Assembly (NCBI GenBank): GCA_963575745.1
Contig: CAUYUJ010001359.1
Span: 466,018 to 530,017, forward strand
From: Prorocentrum cordatum
Lineage: Eukaryota > Sar > Dinophyceae > Prorocentrales > Prorocentraceae
Direction of reading: 5' to 3'
DNA length: 64,000 bases
Of the stretch, positions 1,441 to 53,241 are shown piece by piece (position 1 is the stretch's first letter; each line of letters begins with the position of its first letter). The notes under the pieces were generated by a model. The model was not told where the DNA came from. It did not search any database and worked only from the letters and a program-made list of their open reading frames with translations. Position numbers and translations under genes: made by a program.

Positions 1441-3189
1441 TCCGATTGTAGCCAAGCCGCTGCACTGAAAGGTGAGCGGGCCAGTGCAGAGCTAAGCGGG
1501 AACACGTTAGGTGATATGAACTGAAGCAAAAGTTGCAAGTTCGGAGAGGAATTGCCTGGCAGTACCTGCCGAGAGGGATGACAAGGAGGGAGGATGAGAA
1601 GGACGGGATGAGAAGGAGGAGGCAGGAGCAGGAGGAGGAGGCAGGTGTAGGATGGCGTCACCTAGCTCTCACGCGATGTTTTGGGCCCTGCCGCTCGCAT
1701 GGCGCTCCCGTGGGGGACTCCGCGGTGCTATGAGAAGAGGGAGCAGAGACGAGAGAAGGGAAGAAGAGGAGGAGATACGGAAGGATGAGGAGGGGGACGA
1801 CGACGACGACGACGAGGACCCTAGGAGTTTAGGTTGGCCTCGTGCCCGCCCGCCAAGGGAAAGGAACAGAACACCAACGACGACGAAGGCGAACGACTAC
1901 CGCGACGACGATAGACGGGAGGAGGAGGAGACGAGCATCGGATCTCCGACAGTGTCAAACTGACAGGCGTCAGGCTACACGCTTCTGCAAAGAGGTGGCC
2001 GATGCCATCTCGTTGACGGACGTGTGGCCATTCAATGAAGGAGCCATCCTCAAGATGTGAACAGTCCTGCCGAGAGCACGCAGGACAGCCCCCCCCCCTG
2101 CAACACTGCGATGAACCCAGGGAAAGCCTGGACAGGCGCAGCCCCCACCGGCGGGTGACCCCGAGGAGGGAGGGGAGGAAGGAACGGAGTGCGAGGGCAC
2201 GGAGGGTCGCTGCCAGGCCCTGCCCCGGCCTCGCGACGACGGCCCCGGGAGCCCGCAGGCACCCCCGCGAGACACGCGCCGCGAGCCCCGGGACGCAGGG
2301 CGGCCGGGCTTCGAGCCCCCCCACCAGCGGCTCACACGCCGAGCCCACACGCCACGGGGGCGGCTCACGACCGCGGACACTCTGCCGCGGGCGGCGCGGG
2401 TCGCCCCGTGCGCTCGGCTGCGCCGCACCGCTGCCGATGGCCGCACCGCTGCCGATGGCTGCCGTCGGCACAGCGTCCCTCGGGTCGGGCGAAAGGGGGG
2501 GTTTGGGAAAGGGGGGGTTACGAAATCTGCTGCATGTAGCTGGTTTCGGCCCCGCCGCCGGGCCCATTCCTCGATACATGGGCGCCTTCCGGCGCCAGGC
2601 GACGCCGGGAAAATCAGCTACGTGGGCGCCCCAGCGACACGGCCTGTGCAAGGGAGGCCAGCATCCCGAAGAGGCCGCGCTCGATCCGCACGTGACTCCC
2701 ACTGCGCCGCAGCTGCTGCAGCCATTCCGCTGGTCTCCAGGGGCTCCGCGGGCTGCGCTTCTGGCGCCTCGGTCAGCGCACTGCTCCTGAGCGGGCTGAG
2801 TGGGACGACCGCCGAGGCCGTGCTGCTGAGAGGTGCGCACTCATTCTCGGGCAGGCACATGTGCTGCAACTCCGGAGGCATCTCGCTCCGCCTCGGCGAG
2901 CTTCTCAGCCGAAATCCTCCCGGCACGGGCCTCGATCTCTGGAGATGTCACCGCCGCCGCCACCGCCAAAAGGCCAGCCTCGAGTCGCTCGGCTCATGCA
3001 TCCTCTGCGGGCGGCGCTCCCCGGCCGACCGAGTTGGTCGGCGAGGCAGCCGCTCCTGCTCAGGGTGGTTCTTTTCGCCCGCGACGAGAGAACTTGGGCG
3101 GGGCTCGGCGAGAACTAGAAGGAGGCGAGGGCGGCGCGGGGAGCGCCTGGCGCGGACTCGCGGGGCCCGAGGGGACCTGGGCCAGGTTG
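1441..3189. other. Gene-poor stretch, nothing recognised
   Basis: Long frames on both strands here follow from high GC (about 2050-3180) and from short GGA and GAC runs (1585-1640, 1745-1930). None shows a recognisable domain, and the two strands are open over the same bases, as expected from composition alone. Confidence 0.5.
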
Positions 3190-10930: not shown

Positions 10931-11173
10931 GAGTGGCACGTATGGTCCGCCCCACCGCCTCCCCCTGGGGGCCCCACGCCTGGGGTGGCAGGGGACCGCT
11001 CCGTTCTCCCCCCCCCTCTTTCTGCTGCTGTGGCCTCCTCCCTCCCTCCTCTTCCCCTCTCCCCTGTCTCTTGCCTCCTTCCTCCCCCCCTCCTCCCCCT
11101 CCTTCCGCTGTTGCGGCCCTCTCCCTCCTTCCTCTTCCCCTCTTCTCCCGTCGTCGTCGTCGCCGCCGCCTCC

Positions 11174-11234
<61 letters not shown>

Positions 11235-11244
11235 GGGGCGGTCC
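10930..11244 (+). repeat. Pyrimidine-rich tract and (GTC)n microsatellite upstream of LINE-1
   Basis: About 190 bp of CTCC/CTTCC sequence is followed by a nearly perfect GTC run (11176-11233). The spliced leader of LINE-1 begins within a few bases of its end. The tract could act as a polypyrimidine stretch for splicing into the downstream AAG; that role is inferred from position only. Confidence 0.7.
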
Positions 11245-11245
11245 T
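11228..11245. repeat. Target-site duplication, left copy (LINE-1)
   Basis: The 18-mer GTCGTCGGGGGCGGTCCT occurs here and again at 16027-16044, directly bracketing LINE-1. The last T is shared with the first base of the spliced leader. Exact identity over 18 bp at this location is hard to explain by chance. Confidence 0.85.
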
Positions 11246-11266
11246 CCGTAGCCATTTTGGCTCAAG
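11245..11266 (+). other. Relict dinoflagellate spliced leader at the 5' end of LINE-1
   Basis: All 22 nt match the dinoflagellate SL consensus (DCCGUAGCC at the start, GGCUCAAG at the end, with T in the D position). It is followed by TGGCAATATC and not by a GT donor, so it is not an SL RNA gene but a copy of an SL already joined to an mRNA. Confidence 0.95.
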
Positions 11267-11433
11267 TGGCAATATCGGGCAACCCCCGCCTCGAGGGCTG
11301 AGGCGGCCGCGCGCGATTGCAGTCCTGGAGAGTGCCCCTGGACAGGGACTGCGGCATTGTGCATTTCTTTCTCACTCACGCATTTTGCTGAGTATCGTAA
11401 ACACCATCCCTGAAGTTCCGTTTTCGTGCAGCC

Positions 11434-12341
11434 ATGGCGGACATGGCGGGGATCACGGAGCTCCTCCGCAAGATGAACGAGAGCCAGACGGCTCAACATC
11501 ACGAGTTGCTCGCGAAGGTGACTGCCACGGAGGCTTCGGTGCAGGCGCTGCAAGGCCTGCAACCGCAGGTTGCTGCGCTCGAGACACTGTCACGGTGCTC
11601 GATCAGAAGGTGGACGCGAAGTGCGCCGAGTGCATGGAAGCGGTGAAAGCGCTGCAGGCTCAGTTCTCTTCTCGGCCCGCGTCATCTGCTGGCTCCGCCC
11701 GAAGCTGGTCGACAGGTGCAAAACGTCGTCGTGGTGAAGGCTCAGAGGCTTCTACTATCGCCCCTGAGATGGGTGGTGGACCGACGGACACGCAGAATGT
11801 GTGTCGCAGGTGGGTTGGGACTTTCCCGAGGAAGGTGCTCGACGTGACACGCAAACAAGTTTGGAACGAGATTTTGGTGAAACTACCTCCGTCTCTTCCA
11901 GCTGCTGATGCATCGCCACACTTTCATCGCTCTTCGCAGAGTTTCAGTGTGATATGGTCTACTGAAGAACAAGCTCGTGATTTCTCTACTTGGTTCGGCA
12001 TGAACTGTGTGACCTGGAAGGACCCACGTTGTGGAAATGTAACGCAGCTCCGTTGCCGTGGCGATCCCCCTCATGAAGTTCGGATGCGACAGCGTCACCT
12101 TGGACAGGCGTGGATGCCGTTGATGAAGCTACTTCGTGCACATCGTGACTGGTCCCCTCGGTGCAAGCTTGGATGCTCAGGCTTCTCGAATGCGATCACA
12201 TTGACAACGGACAAAAACGTGTGGGACCTCATACGTGTGGACTCTGACGGCCACGCGGAGTGGGTTCAGGATGACTGTGAGGACTGGGGCATCACGGCGG
12301 ACTTGGTGAAGCCAATCATCGACACGCTCAACCTCCTCTGA
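11434..12341 (+). pseudogene. LINE-1 ORF1 protein, one frameshift
   Basis: The first frame starts at ATG 11434 and gives a helix-prone N-terminus (ITELLRKMNESQTAQHHELL, then VTATEASVQALQ) that looks like a coiled coil. A single-base slip near 11581-11590 moves the frame; the rest reads DTVTVLDQKVDAKCAECMEA and continues to a stop at 12339-12341. The later part has a conserved feel (FSTWFGMNCVTWKDP, KLGCSGFSNAITLTTDKN) but no domain I can name. Its position directly before an endonuclease/RT ORF suggests the nucleic-acid binding partner protein of a LINE. About 300 residues if the slip is ignored. Confidence 0.65.
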
Positions 12342-12353
12342 CAGGCTCCAGTA

Positions 12354-15300
12354 ATGAATGAGGACTGCCGCTTCTTTTCTGTTCCCCCCTCGCACTCGCA
12401 GCCGAGTGTGCCTTCTCTGCCTCCTCCTGTCTCTTGGGTGCCTAGCAGTCGTTTCAGCATTGGGTCGTGGAATTCAGCTACTCTTTTTGGTGCCGAGAGT
12501 GGGGACCGTAGGCATCAAAGCCAGACCTTTAACACGTTTTTGAGGCGAGCAGAAAAATTCGATGTTTTGCTAATTCAAGAATCTCACGGACACTTAGGGG
12601 ACTTAGATACTCTCTCTCGCCTCCTCCCTCACCACAATTGCTTTGGCTCCTTCTGCGTTGATGTGATCTCTGGGGGCGTCTTTATATGCGTCCACGAGCG
12701 TCTTCATATGCAGTTCGACCAGATTACACCGATGAATGTTGTTGGTGGCAGATGTCTAACAGTTGATCTCCATGGGCCCCGAGGTGCTCTTCAACTCTGT
12801 TCTCTTCACCTCCCCCCTAATGACTCGATGACTGGTAAGAAAGAATTCCTATCGTGTGTATCGCGTGCTCTTGACCCTCGGCATGTGACCGTGTTCATAG
12901 GCGGTGACTGGAACTTTTGCGCGATGGGCGAGGCCCGTCAACATGTCGATCCAGCTCTGGATCGCACGCCGCGCTGCTCGCTCGCCACGGAGTTTGGTTG
13001 TCTGTTTGCTCGCTTCACTGAGTTTGGACAGGGGAATCATACGCATTGCATACAACGTGATGGTAAACTTGTCAGCACTGCTCGCATTGACAGAATTTTC
13101 ACATCTCTCCCATCCTCCGTTATCTTGGACCTCTCTCCGGCTGCTGGCGTTGAATGGCAGCCCGCAGAGCTTCGCGATGTTAGTGATCATGTACCTGTCT
13201 ATGCTATCCTCGCTGTGCAGTCCCCCAACTCGTGCGCTGTCATTTCTAGGTGGGTGTGCCGTCAGCCTGCGTTCACGGTGAAGGTAGAAAAGCTGATTGA
13301 AGAGATGGGAGTCTCCGAGGATCCAGCGACAGCAGTTTCTGAGGTCAAGTCGATAATGCATTTAGCGGCGTTGGACATTAAGAATGAACCGTGCTCGGCT
13401 AGTTCGAAAACTATCGGTCACAAAATATCGTGGTGTATGATGTATGATCGTGCTCGTCGTCGAAATGATTTGGGAAAACAGCGCCAAGCTGTTCGCCGCT
13501 TTCCGAAGCTAGAATATTTTGTAGACGATGATGCGAATCTAGTGGGCCCTGACGCTTTTTACGCGTACCTGGCCGAGATCAGCCGTCTGGAACTTGATGG
13601 CGATCGTCAGGAGCTTTTAAATGATAAGGACCTTCCCCATCAGGCAAGGACCTCGGGACTTGCAAGAATCGAACGTCTGGCTCGCGCTTGGGCCCCCCGT
13701 CACAAGCAAGTACTCTTGCAGGGAATTGTGGGCCCAAATGGTAACGCCCACGCTGACCCCCAAGTTTGTGCTAACCTGCTGCAGGATCACTGGGCGAAAG
13801 TTGCCCAACCTTTTCGTTCCTGCCAGGACAGTATGCGTTCTTTGCGTACGTGGATTCAAGCAGCCCCTCAGGACATTCTTTGGACAGTCGATGAAGACCT
13901 TTTTGATCAGCTTCTAGATAAGTCTCGGGATTCTGCCCAAGGATTGGATGGTATTCCGTACTCTGGGTGGAGGTTTGGTGGACCGAGGGCTAGGGGTATT
14001 TTATATGCACATTATCGTCACATCATTGACACTGGGCAGATTCCTGATGAGTTCAATGATGCTTTCCTGGCCTTTCTTCCCAAAGGAGCGCTGGAGGCAG
14101 AGCCGACTCGCGCGCCTGAACATACTCGCCCGCTGGCCTTAGGGAACACGGACTGTAAGTTGATATGCAGTGCTCTCGCACAGCCGCTGAATATTGTGGC
14201 ACGCCGCACCGTCGATAGTGAACAACGTGGTTTTGTGGGAGGGCGTTCCCTGGTGGATAATGTCTTAGCTCTGGATTGGAGATACACCCAATATGCTGCT
14301 TATGAAAATCCCCCCTCTCCTGGCATGGCCTTTTATGATATCAAGTAAGCTTTCCCCAGTATCTCACATGAGTGGATTATGTATGTATTGCATGAAATGG
14401 GTATCCCTGATTGGTATTGCCGAATCGTGGAAAACCTATACGATAACATGCACAAGCACGTGCGCTTTAAGGGTCGCATCTTTGGCAAGTTCAAGGTTGA
14501 GCGTGACATTAAACAAGGTTGTCCTATTTCGGGTCTCCTGTTTGCTCTGGGTCTTGATCCTTGGTTCAGGAAGATTCGGCAAATTCTTGAGGTAGTCCGC
14601 GCTCATCCTTGCGCCTACGCTGATGATCTTGGCATCGTTGCCTATGATCTTGGTGCTGCCCACTCTGTCATGGTGCACGAGTTCGTTCTGCTCGCCAAGT
14701 GCACGGGCCTGTTCTTTCACCCCGCGAAGTGCCAGTTTGTGTTGCCGCGCGACCGTGCGGAATGCGCCTTCCGCAAAGACTGCAGGGAAAAACGAATCCG
14801 CCTCAAATCCTCCAAAATCGGTCGTGCTGGGCTTTACCTTGGGGTCTTCCTGGGTCTCGAGGGTGCTTCTTTGAGATGGCAAGGCCCGTGTCGGGCCCTC
14901 CTCCGTCGTGCCAGGTATGTTATAAGCTTCTGTTTAGGCCTTGCAGGAAATATTCACATGTATAACGTCTACTGTCAGCCCGTCCTACAACACGTTGCCC
15001 AGTTTTACCCCATCACTGATACTGTTCGAGTTGCTGAGCGCGAGGCTCTCCAGCAACTTCCAGTGGCTCCGCGGTTCTCGCTGTCCAGTGCGATTCTATG
15101 TGACCTGAAGCTTTTTGGTATCACATGTGAAGCTCGAGCAGTGGAGCCCAGCGCCCGTGCCGCCCTGTTCCGCGCCGCTCTGCGTTCTGATGAGTTTGCT
15201 CACGGTCGAGAATATCTGGAAGAGTTTACTCGACATGATGGTTGTGAGCTGTTTTATGAGATATCCCACGTACCGGAGTTCGTCCTTCATTCAAATGCGT

Positions 15301-15951
15301 ACCAACTTCGAGTCCTTTATCGACATGCCCTGTATCCCCACTGAGCTCATTGATGGCCTCCAGAGTAAAATTGTGAGATTCCTGTCTCGTCACCTCTACC
15401 CCCTCCCCTCTGCACGCTCTTTTGGTGCCCGTCTGAACTACTGGTGCCCCCTCTCCCCTCAGCAATGTGATTTAACGATGACACGACTATGTAGGATTGG
15501 TCAGAAACTCGGTTCCTGTGTAGCGAGCTCAGTGTTAAAGACGCTGTGCAATGCTGGGGCCACTTCTCGTCGGTTCCGTGCGGGCCGTGCTGGATGCAGG
15601 TTTGGTTGCTATGCAGTAGGAGGAGACGACATCCTCCATTATTTTGCGTGCCCGAATCTGGTCCCCCGTGTCCGTGAGTGTCTTCCACGCCTTCCCCCGT
15701 GCTGGGGTACGGATCCTATCTCCTCGTTTGTCCTCGCGCTTGTCCCTCTCATCGATTCTGATTGCCTGCTCAGTGTCGGTCTAGCCATAGATGCCTTGCA
15801 TGCCACTTTCAACGCCCAGAGGTCTTCTGGGTCTGTCGGTCCCAGGTCAGCCCGGCTTTCACTGTCTGCCCGACTGCGGGCTCAAGCAGTCCGATGCTCT
15901 GTAGCACGACCTCTAGTACGAGGTCTTCGAGGCGCGGGGTTGGACGGTTAG
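12354..15951 (+). pseudogene. LINE-1 ORF2: endonuclease-reverse transcriptase, stop and frameshift
   Basis: The N-terminal domain is an exonuclease-endonuclease-phosphatase fold: SIGSWNSATLFG, LLIQESHGH (catalytic QE), FIGGDWNF, ARIDRIFTSLP and VSDHVPV appear in the expected order between 12450 and 13205. The reverse transcriptase follows with GLDGIPYSGW and FLPKG, motif A (YDIK, then AFPSIS), motif B (IKQGCPISG, near 14511) and the catalytic YADDLG (near 14619). A TAA at 14346-14348 splits motif A in the middle, and a frameshift near 15340 moves the C-terminus to another frame, which ends with a Cys/His segment (CYAVGGDDILHYFACP). The start at 12354 is the first ATG after ORF1. One stop plus one slip suggests recent death. 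Confidence 0.85.
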
Positions 15952-16026
15952 CGGACGGACGTTCTTGCCCTCTTCTCGCCCTTTTGCCCGCTCGCCCTCG
16001 TCTCGTTCTTCCAAGCCGAGTCATGT

Positions 16027-16044
16027 GTCGTCGGGGGCGGTCCT
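16027..16044. repeat. Target-site duplication, right copy (LINE-1)
   Basis: Exact second copy of the 18-mer at 11228-11245. Sequence to its right (GCCTTCCTTGCG) would then be the original continuation of the (GTC)n locus. Confidence 0.85.
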
Positions 16045-25711: not shown

Positions 25712-25726
25712 TCCTCCTCGGCATGG
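25712..25726. repeat. Target-site duplication, left copy (LINE-2)
   Basis: TCCTCCTCGGCATGG here is repeated exactly at 31998-32012. One unmatched G (25727) separates it from the spliced leader. Seven of the 15 bases lie in the CTC microsatellite, so the informative part is shorter than for LINE-1. Confidence 0.7.
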
Positions 25727-25727
25727 G

Positions 25728-25749
25728 TCCGTAGCCATTTTGGCTCAAG
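25728..25749 (+). other. Relict dinoflagellate spliced leader at the 5' end of LINE-2
   Basis: Exact 22-nt match to the SL consensus with T in the variable first position, followed directly by ATGTTTGATG. No GT donor follows, so this is a retrotransposed SL, not an SL RNA gene. Confidence 0.95.
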
Positions 25750-25853
25750 ATGTTTGATGTGGAGGCTTTCAGCCTCCAGGCCTGCAGGGATTGCTCTACC
25801 GAGCACGCGCAAGACGTTTCAGTCTGGAGTCGGGCGGCGCGGCGCGGCGTGCC

Positions 25854-27060
25854 ATGGCTCCTGGCGGCAGCGGCGGCGGACAACCTGGTGGCCCAGCGGC
25901 TTCGAAGAACTGGAAGTGCACGTCGTGCGGCGACAAGAACTTGGGATGGCGTGCGCAGCGCAGGCAGTCTGATTGCTGCGCGTACCGTCCAACTCCTCAC
26001 CTTGTGCCTGGCCCTCCTGGCGGTGTGCAACCCCTGCAAGGCCGCTGGCAGAATGGGCCCCCTGTCGACTGGGCCTGGGCGGGGGCCTAAGCTTCAAGTC
26101 GATCGAGGCGCAGGTGACGGAGGCGGTGGCAAAAGCTACGGCAAGCGCGGATCTCCTGGAGGTGGAGGCGGTGGCAACGGCGGGGGCTCAGGGAAACCAG
26201 CTCAGCCGAAGTACGTCACGCCCACAGAGGAGGTGCGCAGCAAGTATCTGGAGCTCAGCGACGCAGACTTCGCAGTGTTCAGTTCCTTGTGCATCTCTCC
26301 TGCCGACCAGCACTCGCTACGGCAGGCCAGGCTTTGTTGCAGCAGCAGCTTGGGTGGCTCTTTCCCAACAAGGCCATCAAGAGCGCGCAAGTGCTGGCTG
26401 TCGAGGCGGGCAAGAAGCTCTCGAGGGCAAGGGAGGACGGCGAGCGCAAGGATCAAGTAGCAGCAGCAGATGCAGTCTGTGCCACGATCAAGCAGCAGAA
26501 GTACATCCAGGAATTGGAGGTCGAGGTCAAGCAGGCTGTCGCCAAAGCCAAGGAGGTCAAGGAACGCGAGGAGCTCGCCAACCAGCTGAAGGCCGACGAA
26601 CACGCTATGGAAGCCGAGCCCGAAGCCCAAGAAGACGCTGTTGCAGCAGCCTTGGCAATCAGGCACGGCTACTTGGCGCAGGTGGTGGTCGACCAGCTGG
26701 ACGGCGTCGATCTGGGGAAAGCAGCAGGGCCTCTCCAAGATCTTCTTCGGTCTCTGGCAGCGGACAACGCTACCCCGCCCGAGGCAGCCAAGCGCGCGGC
26801 CCAAGCCGCCCCATCTCCTGTGGCAGCAGGAGACAAAGGCGGCAAGGGCAGCGGCAAGGGCAAGGGCGGCATCGACTACGACCCCTACGCCGGCGTGGAG
26901 CTGGAAGACATCACGCAGTTCCAGTTCACCACGGACGCGTTGGAAGCTGCTCTGGCTGAGTTTAGCGACGGCGACGGCAAGAAGCGCGAGGTGCTCGAGC
27001 TTTTCGCCGCTACGCTGGGCAAGAAGGCAAGGTTGGGGCAATGGCAACGAGGGGGGGGGA
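25854..27060 (+). pseudogene. LINE-2 ORF1: zinc finger and coiled-coil protein, frameshifted
   Basis: The most likely start is ATG 25854 (APGGSGGGQPGG), followed by NWKCTSCGDKNLGWR with two Cys pairs characteristic of the small zinc finger of dinoflagellate LINE ORF1 proteins. After a shift the frame gives a Gly-rich linker (SYGKRGSPGGGGGG) and YVTPTEEVRSKYLELSDADF; a second shift leads to a long charged helix (VLAVEAGKKLSRAREDGERK and EVEVKQAVAKAKEVKEREEL), then a Gly/Lys-rich stretch (GDKGGKGSGKGKGG) and ITQFQFTTDALEAALAEF. At least two frameshifts are needed. Role by position: RNA-binding ORF1 protein. Confidence 0.6.
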
Positions 27061-27179
27061 TGTTCAGGGTGTGCACTGTCGACGTGAGTGCCTATGGGAA
27101 CCTGGGCAACTGCATGAGCGGGTCGGTGCCTGACAGTGACCCGGTCAGAATGCAAGAGACCCGGCTTTCGGCTGCACGC

Positions 27180-30100
27180 GCGACGGACGCTGAAGGGGGT
27201 CGTCGTCGTAGGGGATGGCGAGCAACAGGAGCAGCAGCGGTGCCTTCTGAAGCAGGTGGGCTTGCAACAGGAGGACTTCCGCGGACTTCCCACGTTATCC
27301 CGCATGTCTCATGGGTTGGCGCCTATGTTAGGCTCACCGCAACCTAGTTTTCGCGAAGGTCGAGCTTTTGCGCTTCATGTGGCAGGGCTTCTGCCTGGCT
27401 GCTGCCTGGAGGGGTAGTAGTGGTGGATGCGTGCCCGGAGAGCGGCGTTGGCGTCAAACCACACAACGACACGATACTCAAGGACGTGGCAAGAAGGCTA
27501 CGAGAATACGGCAGGCCACATGTGATTGGTGGTGATTTCAGTTGTGCGCGCGAGAAGCTGATGGCGAGTGGCGTTCTGCGCTTCTTTCGTGGCAAGATCG
27601 CGGGCGCGCTCGCTCCGACGTGCATTCAGTCGATGAGGGCGATTGGCTTTTTCATTGTCGCAGGGCCTAGAGGCGCGCAACATCGAGGTGTAGGAGGACT
27701 TGGCGGCGTGGCCACATCGGCCTGCGATGCTCTCGCTCAAGGCGGAGAAGAAGAGGAAGTACCTCAAGCTGGTCGTGTTCCCGAAGGCGTTCCCTCGGCA
27801 TCGACCGATCGGTTGCAGCAGCAAAGACCACGAGCCAGACTGGACCAAGGCAGCCGAGCGAGTTCATCAGACGGTGGCCCAGCCAGGACAGCTTTCAGGG
27901 GCGCGGCAGGCCTTCATGGAGCAAGCTGAGAATGAGTGGATTGACGTCCACCAGAGCAGCGAACATCAAGGTAAGCACCGAGGTCGAGGACACGAACCAC
28001 AAGTTCGACAGGTGCGAGACTTTCCAGTTCCAGGGTCTCGCTGGCCTCGTGTGTCTGCAGCGGCTACCTGGCTGCCTGGCTGTTCAGGGTGGCGAACGAA
28101 CTGCTGGCGACGCCCGTGCTGGAGCAGCTTTTCGCCCGTCGCCAGGCACTACGCGGTGTGCGCAGGCTGTTGCCCAAGGCGCCAAGTTCGTCCAGGGTAA
28201 GCCCCCCTGGCCGCGAGGCCCCGCCGTGCTCGCGCCCCGGGGCTTCTCCTGTGGCGAGCCCGTGGTGGCACCCGCTCAACAGCTTGCGCTCGTGCGCTGC
28301 GGACGTGGCTACGCTTGCAACTCTGGGATCTGGCGCCAAGCGGGCGGCCGCAGAGATCGCGGACTTCGACGCGGCCGGGCGTGGCAAGAAGTTCGAGGAC
28401 TGGGTCGAGAAGCAGTCGTTGGGTGGAGGTGGAGGCCTCCACGCTCTCACTGAAGTCCCCGCTGGCTTCGACCCCCGCCCTGCGGGGGCTGGCGCGGGCG
28501 ACCAGCCCCACGCGTCGACGGACCTGGCGGGCGAGGCCAGCGCGCTCGAGATGGAGTTGAGCCGTTGGCGGCGTTGCGGTTTGCTTCGGGAAAAGATCCG
28601 ATGGCCGAAAGATCTTGGTGAACGACCGCCGAAGCCCACCCTCGACGAGTTGAAGAGAGCGCTCGTGACCTTTCCTGTGCAGACGGGCACGTCCTTCGAC
28701 GCAATCAGCCCGAGGCGGCTCCTCGAGCTGAGCGACGCTGTTTTGGGTATACCGGCTGTCATCATTTCTGCGATTGAGCATGAAGCGGAATGGCCCGAGT
28801 GGGTGGTTTGATACCAGTCACCAGAGAAGTGGCAGGCGCAGTTTTTCGTTTGCAGACGTTTTTGGAAGCAGTGGATCTGAGGGTGGCAGCCTCCAAGTCC
28901 AGGGCCCTGGCCAACGTCCCAGAAGCCAGGCGCGCAGTCGAGAAGAAGCCCGGGGGTCCGATGGGCATGAAGTTGGTGGCCACGGATAGAAACCTCGGGG
29001 TAGACTTCGCGCGTGGACGTCGAGTGCCTCGAGCCGTTCGTTGTGTTAAACTGGCAGCAGCGGGGCTTCGGATACGGCGGGTTTTCTTGCTCGAAGGAGG
29101 TGCGGGCAGACGACGAGCAGTTCGCAAAGTTGCTCGCGTTGGCTTGGAGGCCTCGGTCAGCTATGGTTTCAACGTGACAGGCTGCGCTTCAGAGGAGCTG
29201 AACAAAGTCCGAAGCTAGGTTTTCGCCGCAGTGGCGCCGACGACTGCAGGGCGTTCTCGATCCTTGACTTCGATGCTGGCCACGGCCTCGGACCCGATGA
29301 TCAGAGCTACGGCGTGCCCAGTCCTGACTCTGCCAAGGGCGGTCTGGGAGCAGTGGATACCGCAGCACATCGCGGAGTACTGCCTGGGCAACTGCCAAGC
29401 GGAGTTTTGGAGCCAGGTCAAGGGCAGTTTGTCAGCAGTGCGCATGACGTTGGCGCGTGTCGGTTGGACCATCCTCAAGCCGAGTCTGTGGCAAACGCAT
29501 GAAGGAGTTCAGGTGCAGGTGTTTGAGGTTTCCCCTTGGGCCGTCAAGCGATTGCTTTGGAGAGCGATTGAAGCATGGCAATGGAACCAAGTAGGCAAGC
29601 AAGAGGGGTTACAACATCTCGCCGCTGGAGGTGTTCTCGAACCACTTGTGCGACTTACGCGCAGCGGCGCCGCCAAGTTGAATGGTTCTCTCGGCAAGCA
29701 AGGCGTGTCCACGGTGGATGTCAAGAAGGTCCAAGCGCCTGCTGTTTGCGCAGCTGCGGTGCCAGTTCTTACGCCGGCGGTGCCCCTTGCAGCTCGTCAG
29801 AAAGATGTTATGGCAGCAGTTCCTGTTCCCCGTGGCGGCCGCGTTCAGGATGAAGGCGTCGAGGCGTCATGAAGCCAGTGCAGGTGTCAGCTACCTCGTT
29901 GGGCGATCTTCGGCAAGCTGTAGGCGCACGTTGGTCAGGTTTGTTTCGCAATTTATCTGGGGACGTTTGCAGCTGCGCAGGGGAGGTGCAAGAAGGCTCC
30001 ACTCCAGATGACGGTGGTCCGAGTGGAGTTCCCGGTGCTCTGCAATTCGTTGGTCTAGCGTGTGTGGCAGAAGGTGGCGAGTTGCGTCGGGACGCTGCGT

Positions 30101-30580
30101 CGCCACGCACGGGCACAGGCCTGTCTGAGTTTTCCGTCGCGTGGATTGCTCGAGCAAGCCCCGTCCGATCACCGAATGCAGCTCGGAAATCGCAGCCTTG
30201 CTGAGACCAGCAAGGCCGTTCTGAAGGCGATCAGGCTGGCGGCGAAGGAAAGGGGCTACTTGGAATCTTTGGTGCAAGGAGGACAAAGGTCTCAAAGCCG
30301 TAAGTACGAATGTGGATATGCAGCAGATCCTCTGCGCCTCATGCGCGGCAAGTTGGGGGGCCCTGCTACGTCGGCATTGTGAATGTGAAGGATGGCCCCC
30401 CAGAGCTTCGTCTATCTGATCCAATAGCTAAGTTGGTTTCGCGAGCAGACGAGGCACCTGCGCGTTGTCTTCTTGAACGTGGGCTCTGGCCTATGCCACA
30501 GGGTATTGCACTGCCTCCAAAAGCTGATCATGTGTGTTGGCTTGGTCAAGGAGCTGCTGGTTGGTTGCCGTCAGGGGCGC
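27180..30580 (+). pseudogene. LINE-2 ORF2: endonuclease and reverse transcriptase remnant
   Basis: The endonuclease is recognised from VVDACPESG, ILKDVARRL, HVIGGDFSCAREKLMASGV and IGFFIVAGP (27420-27680), equal to the GDWN and final strands of the EEP fold. The RT N-terminal region appears at 28640-28800 (GTSFDAISPRRLLELSDAVL, EAEWPEWVV), and then the frame jumps near 28810-28840 directly into the post-catalytic part (DLRVAASKSRALAN, MKLVATDRNLGVDFARGRR). The palm with its Asp-Asp box, normally some 200 residues, is absent. Further frames (29231-29872) read through the thumb and connection region. Many shifts separate these pieces. Confidence 0.65.
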
Positions 30581-30584
30581 TGTA

Positions 30585-31050
30585 TCTGGGTGGCTCAGCG
30601 TACGAGGGGGAGCTTGAGAGGTACAGCGCAGTTGAATGGGCCGTAGTGGCATTGAAGACTACTTCAGATGAGCTCGACGTTGGGATCTCAGGCGTGCAGA
30701 ACGAATTTGTCGTGGACATGGAGGCGAGTTGGCCGCCTTGCTGCGCTTGCTCAAGTACGCGGCACCTCCAGTGACTGCCGTCACCGACAGCTCGTTCGTG
30801 ATCAAGGGGCTCGCGGAGCACGGGCCAGCCAGGACCGCCGCCGATGGGCATGCTTGGGCCGACTTGCGGAAGCAAGTTTGGTACCTGGTGGAGGAGTTTG
30901 GAGGTCTTGGCCCCGGCGGGCTCACGGTAGTCAAGATTGCGTCACACGTGCCCAAGGAGAACCTGCAGGAGTGCGACCTCAGCAACAGGGACTGGCCTGG
31001 CAACAAGTACGCGGACATAACAGCGAAGAGCGCAGCGGCCTCCTGCTGAA
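30585..31050 (+). pseudogene. LINE-2 RNase H domain remnant
   Basis: YLGGSAYEGELERYSAVEWA gives the first strand and helix, and after a frameshift near 30730-30750 comes AALLRLLKYAAPPVTAVTDS with SSFVIKGLAEHGPA (TDS aspartate), VKIASHVP (His region) and GNKYADITAKSA (last Asp). Spacing fits an RNase H type I domain. It is joined in order behind the RT remnant. A Cys motif (VACAACGAAASCKQ, GREC; about 31410-31485) follows, typical of the C-terminus of these LINE proteins. Confidence 0.6.
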
Positions 31051-31569
31051 TCCGTGGAGCTGACCGCAATCGCCCACGGGACGCTCATCAACTCGCCGAG
31101 GGTGTTGCGACGTGGGCCGCACCAGTTGGCGCCAGCACTGGCGGTGAGGACACGACGCATCGGAAGTCGAAGCCTAACAAGCCAGCGCCGAAGTCGGCAT
31201 ACAAAGCATTTTCAGAAGCTCTTCGGCGCGACCTGCGTGGAGAGCCAGGAGAACGCTGGCGCGCAAGATGCAGGTGGCCTGAGAGGAGCTCGGAGTGTTC
31301 TGGCGACATCGTGTCTGCAGCGTTGGCCCTCAACCTCAAGCTGCGCAAGCCGCGCATGCTGGTGAAGTTGACGCTTGTTCGAGACGCAGAGCTCACGAGG
31401 GACCTTCCGCTCGTGGCTTGTGCGGCCTGTGGGGCAGCTGCCTCCTGCAAGCAGTCAACCTTCGGTCGAGAATGTGGACGCCCCAGTGCCAAGGGGAAGC
31501 TAGCCGCGGCAAGGCTGGCCACAGGACTTGCGCCCACCGTTTCAGCGAGAGTCATGGTCGACTTGAAGA

Positions 31570-31850
31570 GGACTGGCGATGGAGACGGTCGTCCTGGCGC
31601 ACCTGCGGGAGTGCCAGGGGCTGTCGGTGAGGGGGGTGGTCGTCCTGGCGCGCCTAGGGGCATACCAGGGGCTGTCCATTCTGGTGTGCAGTGTATGTCG
31701 GGCGGAGAGCAATGTGGCTCTGCCGACCCGACGGGGGTGGGCCTGCGCCGCGACTCCGCTTGCCAGGACCAGAGTACGTCGGGCGGAGGGCGTTGGAGCT
31801 CTGCCGACTCGACGGGGATGGGCTTGCGCCGCGACCCCGAGCGGGGCCGC
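31570..31850 (+). repeat. Two short tandem repeats in the LINE-2 3' region
   Basis: GGTCGTCCTGGCGC and CCAGGGGCTGTC recur with a period of about 60 bp (31585-31680). Then a unit of about 88 bp with GTCGGGCGGAG, CTCTGCCGAC, CGACGGGG and TGGGC(C/T)TGCGCCGCGAC is duplicated (31696-31850). Confidence 0.75.
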
Positions 31851-31962
31851 TCACCGAGAAGGGCGACTTCGGGTTCGCGAAGCAGGACTTCATCACGGTC
31901 GGGGGGCCCCACCTCGCAAGGGGGGCCTCCCGCGGACGCGCCCGCGGCCGCGGGAGCGCGTC

Positions 31963-31984
31963 GGGCGGTCGGCACCGACCGCCC
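31963..31984. repeat. Perfect 10-bp hairpin near the LINE-2 3' end
   Basis: GGGCGGTCGG pairs exactly with CCGACCGCCC across a two-base CA gap. It lies 13 bp from the deduced 3' end of the element. Confidence 0.85.
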
Positions 31985-31997
31985 TAGGACACGCCGA

Positions 31998-32012
31998 TCC
32001 TCCTCGGCATGG
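31998..32012. repeat. Target-site duplication, right copy (LINE-2)
   Basis: Second exact copy of TCCTCCTCGGCATGG. To its right the frame leads into the endonuclease of LINE-3. Confidence 0.7.
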
Positions 32013-53219: not shown

Positions 53220-53241
53220 CTTGAGCCAAGATGGCCACGAA
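53220..53241 (-). other. Possible degenerate spliced leader, minus strand
   Basis: On the minus strand this reads TTCGTGGCCATCTTGGCTCA followed by AG, matching the SL in 19 of 22 positions with three transitions. The core GGCCATCTTGG is, however, a frequent word of the local dispersed repeat, which weakens the case. No retrogene is recognised behind it. Confidence 0.25.

What the first reader, a model, noticed from the sequence alone, without database searches (positions are those of the whole stretch)
11228..16044. LINE beginning exactly at a spliced leader and bounded by an 18-bp target-site duplication
Seen: a perfect 22-nt dinoflagellate SL at 11245, the 18-mer GTCGTCGGGGGCGGTCCT ending on its first base, and the same 18-mer exactly at 16027, 75 bp past the end of ORF2. 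Known: SL relics mark retroposed dinoflagellate mRNAs. Inference: the SL trans-spliced transcript of the LINE itself was the template, reverse transcribed to its very first base and inserted whole. The host trans-splicing reaction would thus supply the 5' end of a mobile element.
Basis: partly seen in the sequence, partly recalled or inferred. Interest (0 to 1): 0.92.

Follow-up and report, generated by a model that had tools for sequence, protein, structure and literature searches.

The report
LINEs capped by host spliced leader
A family of jumping genes in a red-tide alga starts exactly at the short leader that the host cell splices onto its messenger RNAs, which suggests that the host's own RNA processing rebuilds the front end of the jumping gene each time it copies itself.

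Summary
The LINE (endonuclease + reverse transcriptase) starts at a perfect DinoSL between 18-bp duplications. Thirteen paralogous empty sites (two identical) carry that 18-mer once, with both flanks and no LINE.

All 16 close full-length copies found start at the SL (15 perfect). Of 18 copies tested, 16 have their own >=17-nt duplication, against 16 of 306 swapped-flank pairs. The 3 truncated copies examined (of 5) lack the SL. The SL shows 1 mismatch in 336 sites; the body averages 5.2%. Seven of 16 copies carry SL plus an inner relic cut exactly after the SL's own AG; that state changes at least 5 times on the copy tree. In L010, SL and relic are joined after an internal AG.

Best reading: each round, a transcript starting upstream is trans-spliced onto an AG in or near the old SL, then reverse-transcribed into a trinucleotide repeat, so trans-splicing renews the 5' end. 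At least three further LINEs (L027, L081, L082) also start at the SL; the genome holds 14,218 exact SLs. No cDNA was tested.

The parts
11150..11232 (+). pre-insertion (GTC)n-rich microsatellite, left flank
   Evidence: sequence; a similar tract stands in the empty paralogues
11228..11245 (+). left target-site duplication GTCGTCGGGGGCGGTCCT
   Evidence: single copy in 13 of 13 empty paralogues
11245..11266 (+). complete dinoflagellate spliced leader, 5' end of the LINE
   Evidence: start point of all 16 close full-length copies found
11267..11433 (+). 5' UTR; holds the internal AG (CTCGAG^GGCTG) at which copy L010 is joined to SL + relic
11434..12341 (+). ORF1 (302 aa in most sister copies), frameshifted near 11.6 kb here; only sub-threshold Pfam matches
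12354..14348 (+). ORF2, endonuclease part (Exo_endo_phos); ends at an in-frame stop in this copy
14379..15344 (+). ORF2, reverse transcriptase part (RVT_1)
15345..15951 (+). ORF2, C-terminal part, in another frame here
15952..16026 (+). 3' UTR ending ...CCGAGTCATGT, no poly(A); same or nearly the same 3' end in the sister copies, followed by NTC-rich target
16027..16044 (+). right target-site duplication
25712..25726 (+). left duplication of the second SL-headed element (TCCTCCTCGGCATGG)
25728..31997 (+). second SL-headed element (family B), starting at a perfect SL; degraded; no Pfam hit in the six open stretches tested of copy L079, LINE-like motifs by eye only
31998..32012 (+). right duplication of family B

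Best explanation
This is an endonuclease/RT LINE whose 5' end is made by the host. (1) A copy sitting in a trinucleotide repeat is transcribed from somewhere upstream (inferred). (2) The host's SL RNA is trans-spliced onto an AG at the element's front: usually the AG ending the SL copied in the previous round (giving one SL), sometimes the AG inside that SL, CCGTAG^CC (giving SL + 15-nt relic), rarely an AG further in (L010). The upstream leader is discarded and a fresh complete 5' end is added (the products are shown; the reaction is inferred). (3) The mRNA is reverse-transcribed to its first base at a nicked, mostly (NTC)n, target, giving duplications of mostly 17-22 bp (products shown, mechanism inferred). 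The new copy carries a ready acceptor with it, so it needs no promoter or ribozyme of its own to define its 5' end.
For: 16 of 16 close full-length copies found start at the SL, 15 perfect over 21 nt. Own duplications >=17 nt in 16 of 18 copies, against 16 of 306 swapped pairs. Empty site in 13 of 13 paralogues, 12 distinct. Of 21 close 3' ends 5 have no 5' match; the 3 of these examined start inside the element without SL, 2 with clear duplications. SL 1 mismatch in 336; body 5.23% from the majority base; only 12 of 4745 21-column stretches equally conserved; unambiguous duplications 3 mismatches in 200. Inner relic in 7 of 16, >=5 changes on the tree, no more clustered than shuffles; sisters L022/L023 differ. 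L010: SL + relic joined after CTCGAG. Genome-wide 1202 of 1339 SL-relic tandems start exactly after the SL's AG. Further LINEs start at the SL: L081 (EN + RT), L082 (RT), L027 (ORF2 similarity).
Against: No transcript data. The first 60 aligned columns after the SL are also well conserved (2.0%), so constraint could explain part of the SL's purity. 8 of the 39 starts read have an imperfect outermost SL (L086 4 mismatches, L026 and L090 3, L024, L093, L094 2, L023, L095 1), and both family B copies fetched have decayed SLs. L096 has a mutated outer relic above a perfect inner one, against a simple age gradient. One or two extra bases stand between duplication and SL's CCGTAG in 11 of 18 copies, one of them normally the SL's variable first base. 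7 of 30 sampled SLs follow GGA-strand repeats, which offer no pyrimidine tract for splicing (by eye). Duplications of L081 and L082 lie in pure (CTC)n and cannot be delimited.
Confidence: 0.87

Rival explanations
1. The SL was captured once, long ago, and has since been copied as an ordinary part of the element, whose internal promoter starts transcription at its first base.
For: Every close full-length copy found has it, and the 5' UTR next to it is also conserved, as an internal promoter would be. Divergent SL-headed sequences share that 5' UTR.
Against: SL-relic tandems cut at AG cannot arise by copying alone; the relic state changes >=5 times among 16 copies. L010 lacks the first 29 nt of 5' UTR yet has SL + relic. 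SL divergence is far below that of the body. The SL's first base varies (T, A, G).
Confidence: 0.07
2. Double SLs come from one trans-splicing event with a tandem-SL donor RNA, as proposed for Fugacium tandem-SL genes (PMC6616646), and not from repeated rounds.
For: Tandem-SL genes are reported in Fugacium (passages).
Against: Concerns only the doubles; the 5' end would still be host-supplied. Perfect outer SLs above mutated inner relics occur (L096; a few of the 100 places listed).
Confidence: 0.2
3. The LINE targets SL RNA genes, as SLACS/CZAR do (recalled), so the SL belongs to the target.
For: SL stands at the 5' junction.
Against: The 13 empty sites hold no SL (best match 10 or more mismatches); the 3 truncated copies examined lack it; the duplication lies outside the SL.
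Confidence: 0.01
4. The RT jumped from LINE RNA to a free SL RNA during insertion (template switch, like L1-U6 chimeras, recalled).
For: Would give SL at the 5' end of full-length copies.
Against: A jump onto SL RNA would first copy its intron part; in the family A copies the element's own 5' UTR follows the SL or relic directly, and relics begin at AG.
Confidence: 0.03

Closest known systems
DinoSL-tagged retrogenes of dinoflagellates (mRNA recycling; Slamovits & Keeling 2008, not read, as cited in passages of PMC3229502 and PMC12014239)
   Same: Genomic SL, relics truncated after nt 7 at AG, repeated rounds
   Different: Here the SL heads the autonomous element itself, with target-site duplications, empty sites and its own RT; it recurs in the LINE's own cycle
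Trypanosomatid L1Tc/ingi LINEs (PMC8190864, passages)
   Same: LINEs living in an SL trans-splicing host
   Different: [quoted passage not shown] no Rfam family reached its gathering score in the window
Hydra transposable elements with SL-bearing Iso-Seq reads (PMC12220107, passages)
   Same: TE transcripts are trans-spliced (about 30% of TE reads)
   Different: That is RNA evidence only; the two passages seen do not report SL-headed genomic copies
SLACS/CZAR (recalled)
   Same: LINE joined to SL sequence
   Different: Those insert into SL RNA genes; here the SL arrives with the element
Microsatellite-targeting LINEs (recalled; PMC4640811 abstract mentions such targets for another endonuclease type)
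   Same: Insertion into simple repeats
   Different: Targets are (GTC)n, (ATC)n and (CTC)n in one family with an AP-like endonuclease; specificity not tested biochemically

Membership tests
LINE (non-LTR retrotransposon) | reverse transcriptase domain | tested here: met
   RVT_1 5e-11 in the window, 3.4e-23 in copy L015; PDB LINE-1 ORF2p 3.6e-5
LINE (non-LTR retrotransposon) | AP-like endonuclease in the same element | tested here: met
   Exo_endo_phos 8.8e-7, above cut-off, in the window; just below cut-off in copy L009
LINE (non-LTR retrotransposon) | variable-length target-site duplications, 5'-truncated copies | tested here: met
LINE (non-LTR retrotransposon) | no long terminal repeats | not tested
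   No LTR seen by eye; the repeat finder was not run
LINE (non-LTR retrotransposon) | poly(A) or simple-repeat 3' tail (not universal) | tested here: not met
   3' end GAGTCATGT abuts the duplication; no tail
named LINE clade (L1, CR1, ...) | placement in an RT tree | not tested
   Only similarity searches were run
DinoSL-tagged retrocopy | genomic SL or relic at the 5' end | tested here: met
DinoSL-tagged retrocopy | relics start after the AG at SL nt 6-7 | tested here: met
   7 of 7 relics in family A; 1202 of 1339 tandems genome-wide
Trypanosomatid L1Tc/ingi type | HDV-like ribozyme at the 5' end | tested here: not met
   no Rfam match at gathering score in the window
SLACS/CZAR | insertion into SL RNA genes | tested here: not met
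   13 empty sites hold no SL

The most novel reading that the evidence does not exclude
In this dinoflagellate a whole community of LINE families has given up defining its own 5' end. Trans-splicing onto an acceptor inside the SL left by the previous round rebuilds the 5' end at every cycle, so read-through transcription from any upstream site suffices. In one class the SL is the entire 5' UTR (ATG directly after it: 1823 of 14,218 SLs; not all of these are shown to be LINEs). The same machinery would make the SL-tagged host retrogenes, answering which element does that.
Probability: 0.55. Interest if true: 0.88.

Novelty: new variant of a known kind. Interest (0 to 1): 0.8.

Why it matters
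LINEs must keep their 5' end through every copying round, usually by an internal promoter or a 5' ribozyme. Here host trans-splicing appears to do this, which makes any transcribed insertion a potential source and gives the genome many portable splice acceptors. A review (PMC6050394, passages) says it is unknown which element type mediates dinoflagellate retroposition and favours LTR elements; SL-headed LINEs with young duplications (3 mismatches in 200 nt) are a concrete candidate. The copies also record, in their SL-relic structure, which acceptor was used.

Tried and rejected
SL as part of the target, or insertion in SL RNA genes: rejected by the empty sites and the truncated copies examined. 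5' ribozyme: no Rfam match at gathering scores in the window; a permissive scan of 11200-11460 gave only two chance-like hits. 5' UTR structure: no excess stability, z 0.41. Protein relatives of the window's endonuclease part: none at E <= 0.001 among the 8000 best candidates. Ten open stretches 2.7-3.9 kb behind six SLs (the first on contig 1, less L029, L033 and L035) gave no Pfam RT or endonuclease, so the share of SLs that head LINEs stays unmeasured; one of the six (L106) resembles L081 at protein level. Family C was read only at its 5' end; that it is a LINE is not shown. Phage records with the 5' end: none. No duplication was found for the third SL at 53241. Six open stretches of family B copy L079: no Pfam match. 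In one search the window's ORF1 was read one base out of frame; one search used copy L009 instead. Counting TCC tracts before all SLs did not complete.
Full report
OBSERVATION. A perfect 22-nt DinoSL lies at 11245-11266 and the 18-mer at 11228-11245 and 16027-16044 only. Between them lie an ORF1-like frame, an endonuclease (Exo_endo_phos) and a reverse transcriptase (RVT_1); the RT resembles human LINE-1 ORF2p weakly. The copy is broken: frameshift in ORF1, in-frame stop and frameshift in ORF2.

SOURCE. Contig 1 (3,562,531 bp) and window GC 59.6% fit the P. cordatum assembly (4.15 Gbp, longest 3.56 Mbp, GC 59.7%; PMC10666404, passages); proteins named P. cordatum appear among the relatives of L081.

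COPIES, 5' END. A search with 11228-11800 listed 42 matches at 40 places (40 of 59 candidates scored). All 40 places were read at their 5' end (window included). Thirty-nine start at the SL or, for L090, at SL relics; one is truncated inside the element. The outermost 21 nt are perfect in 31 of 39: 15 of 16 in the close family (family A, 81-100% identity over nearly the whole query), 3 of 5 (L024-L028) and 13 of 18 (L083-L100). L093 and L094 share their flank, so they are probably one insertion duplicated. In 20 copies fetched with 500 bp upstream, blastn found no homology to the window upstream of the SL except trinucleotide and pyrimidine-rich low-complexity runs; for the other 18 only about 55-95 bp upstream were seen, by eye.

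DUPLICATIONS. Of 18 copies with a readable 3' end, 16 have >=17 nt anchored at both ends; among 306 swapped-flank pairs 16 do, as expected from shared repeats. L012 (score 0) and L015 (8) failed that test; L012 has a 14-nt match by the other method. In the 11 copies with unambiguous duplications there are 3 mismatches in 200 nt; 7 copies in long repeats were left out of that count. Targets are mostly (GTC)n, (ATC)n or (CTC)n.

EMPTY SITES. The window's right flank belongs to another repeat family (40 of 375 candidates scored). The 13 paralogues whose match begins at the query's first base were fetched; places beginning at base 3 or later were not. In 13 of 13 the 18-mer occurs once within the 361 bp read (0-1 mismatch), the sequence before it is homologous to the window's left flank, and no SL is present (best 10-11 mismatches of 21). 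L109 and L110 are identical.

TRUNCATED COPIES. A 3'-end search gave 21 copies at >=82% identity (40 of 115 candidates scored); 16 are the full-length ones and 5 have no full 5' match. Three of the 5 were read: none has an SL at its truncation point; C17367 and C10386 have clear duplications, C14466 does not. The SL is therefore the end of a complete copy and not a target feature.

RENEWAL. On 4766 aligned columns the 16 copies average 5.23% from the majority base; the SL has 1 mismatch in 336; 12 of 4745 21-column stretches are as conserved. A simple binomial gives 3e-7 at the body rate but 0.008 at the rate of the first 60 columns (2.0%), and ignores relatedness. The SL's divergence fits the age given by the duplications (about 0.75% per copy; P 0.28). 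Seven of 16 copies have SL + CCATTTTGGCTCAAG; this state needs at least 5 changes on the tree, within the range of 2000 shuffles, so it is not stably inherited. In L010 SL + relic is joined after CTCGAG within the 5' UTR. Genome-wide there are 14,218 exact SLs (pattern read backwards: 0), 1202 exact SL-relic tandems and 1339 with any spacer of 0-12 nt before TTTTGGCTCAAG, so 90% of these start exactly after the AG at SL nt 6-7.

GENERALITY. Family B (window 25728-31997) has its own 15-bp duplication, and the two copies fetched start at decayed SLs. Of 30 listed places of a family C 15 were fetched, and 15 of 15 start at the SL (14 perfect); its coding content was not tested. Of 30 SLs taken in contig order, 21 follow trinucleotide-periodic sequence, against 35 of 522 stretches further upstream (6.7%) and 2.9% of 5000 random window stretches. 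L081 is a LINE with a 1864-aa open frame whose first ATG directly follows the SL, with EN and RT; L082 has an RT; L027 has ORF2 similarity to family A. SL+ATG occurs 1823 times, about 173 expected from base composition. L058, a WD40 protein gene, carries the SL and a 16-bp duplication, linking a host retrocopy to a duplication of similar length; its target is not a microsatellite.

MECHANISM. Because the SL's own AGs serve as acceptors, the transcript must begin upstream of the copied SL; nothing conserved was found there, so promoters are external or lie inside the element and start upstream (open). This speaks, for these elements, against the idea that the relic SL is itself the promoter (PMC6050394, passages), since a start within the SL would not leave its first AG in the transcript.

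LITERATURE. Searches, and passages, showed SL relics on retrogenes, SL on Hydra TE reads and LINEs in dinoflagellates, but no LINE whose genomic 5' end is the SL. The library holds open-licence papers only; the 2008 original and most hits listed were not opened.

Noticed in passing
window 25728-32012: Second SL-headed element with 15-bp duplication; its flank downstream (about 32240) looks like another LINE endonuclease (by eye).
   Followed up: partly
window 53220-53241 (-): Decayed SL (3 mismatches) heading a sequence without detectable duplication.
   Followed up: partly
L025-L027 against window 11245-11437: Other SL-headed sequences share the first ~150-190 nt of 5' UTR at 77-80%; the ORF2 of L026/L027 is only 25-33% identical to family A (no hit for L025). 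Looks like a shared or exchanged 5' module.
   Followed up: partly
L081 (G000 C1:620962): LINE with a 1864-aa open frame starting directly after the SL, which would be its whole 5' UTR.
   Followed up: partly
L107, IMG/VR contig, 2746-2766 and 2893-2913 (-): Two exact DinoSLs in a virus-labelled contig, one before a 254-aa ORF without Pfam match: perhaps captured host cDNA.
   Followed up: no
L082 (C1:888022) and C1:893877: Two SL-headed sequences placed head to tail in one (TCC)n tract.
   Followed up: no
L015 3' end: Element 3' end ATGTATCATC repeated three times before (ATC)n, as if the RT had slipped at the start of copying.
   Followed up: no
L090: Copy starting with CTCAAG + relic instead of a full SL, like the CTCAAG pattern described in PMC12014239 (passage).
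   Followed up: no
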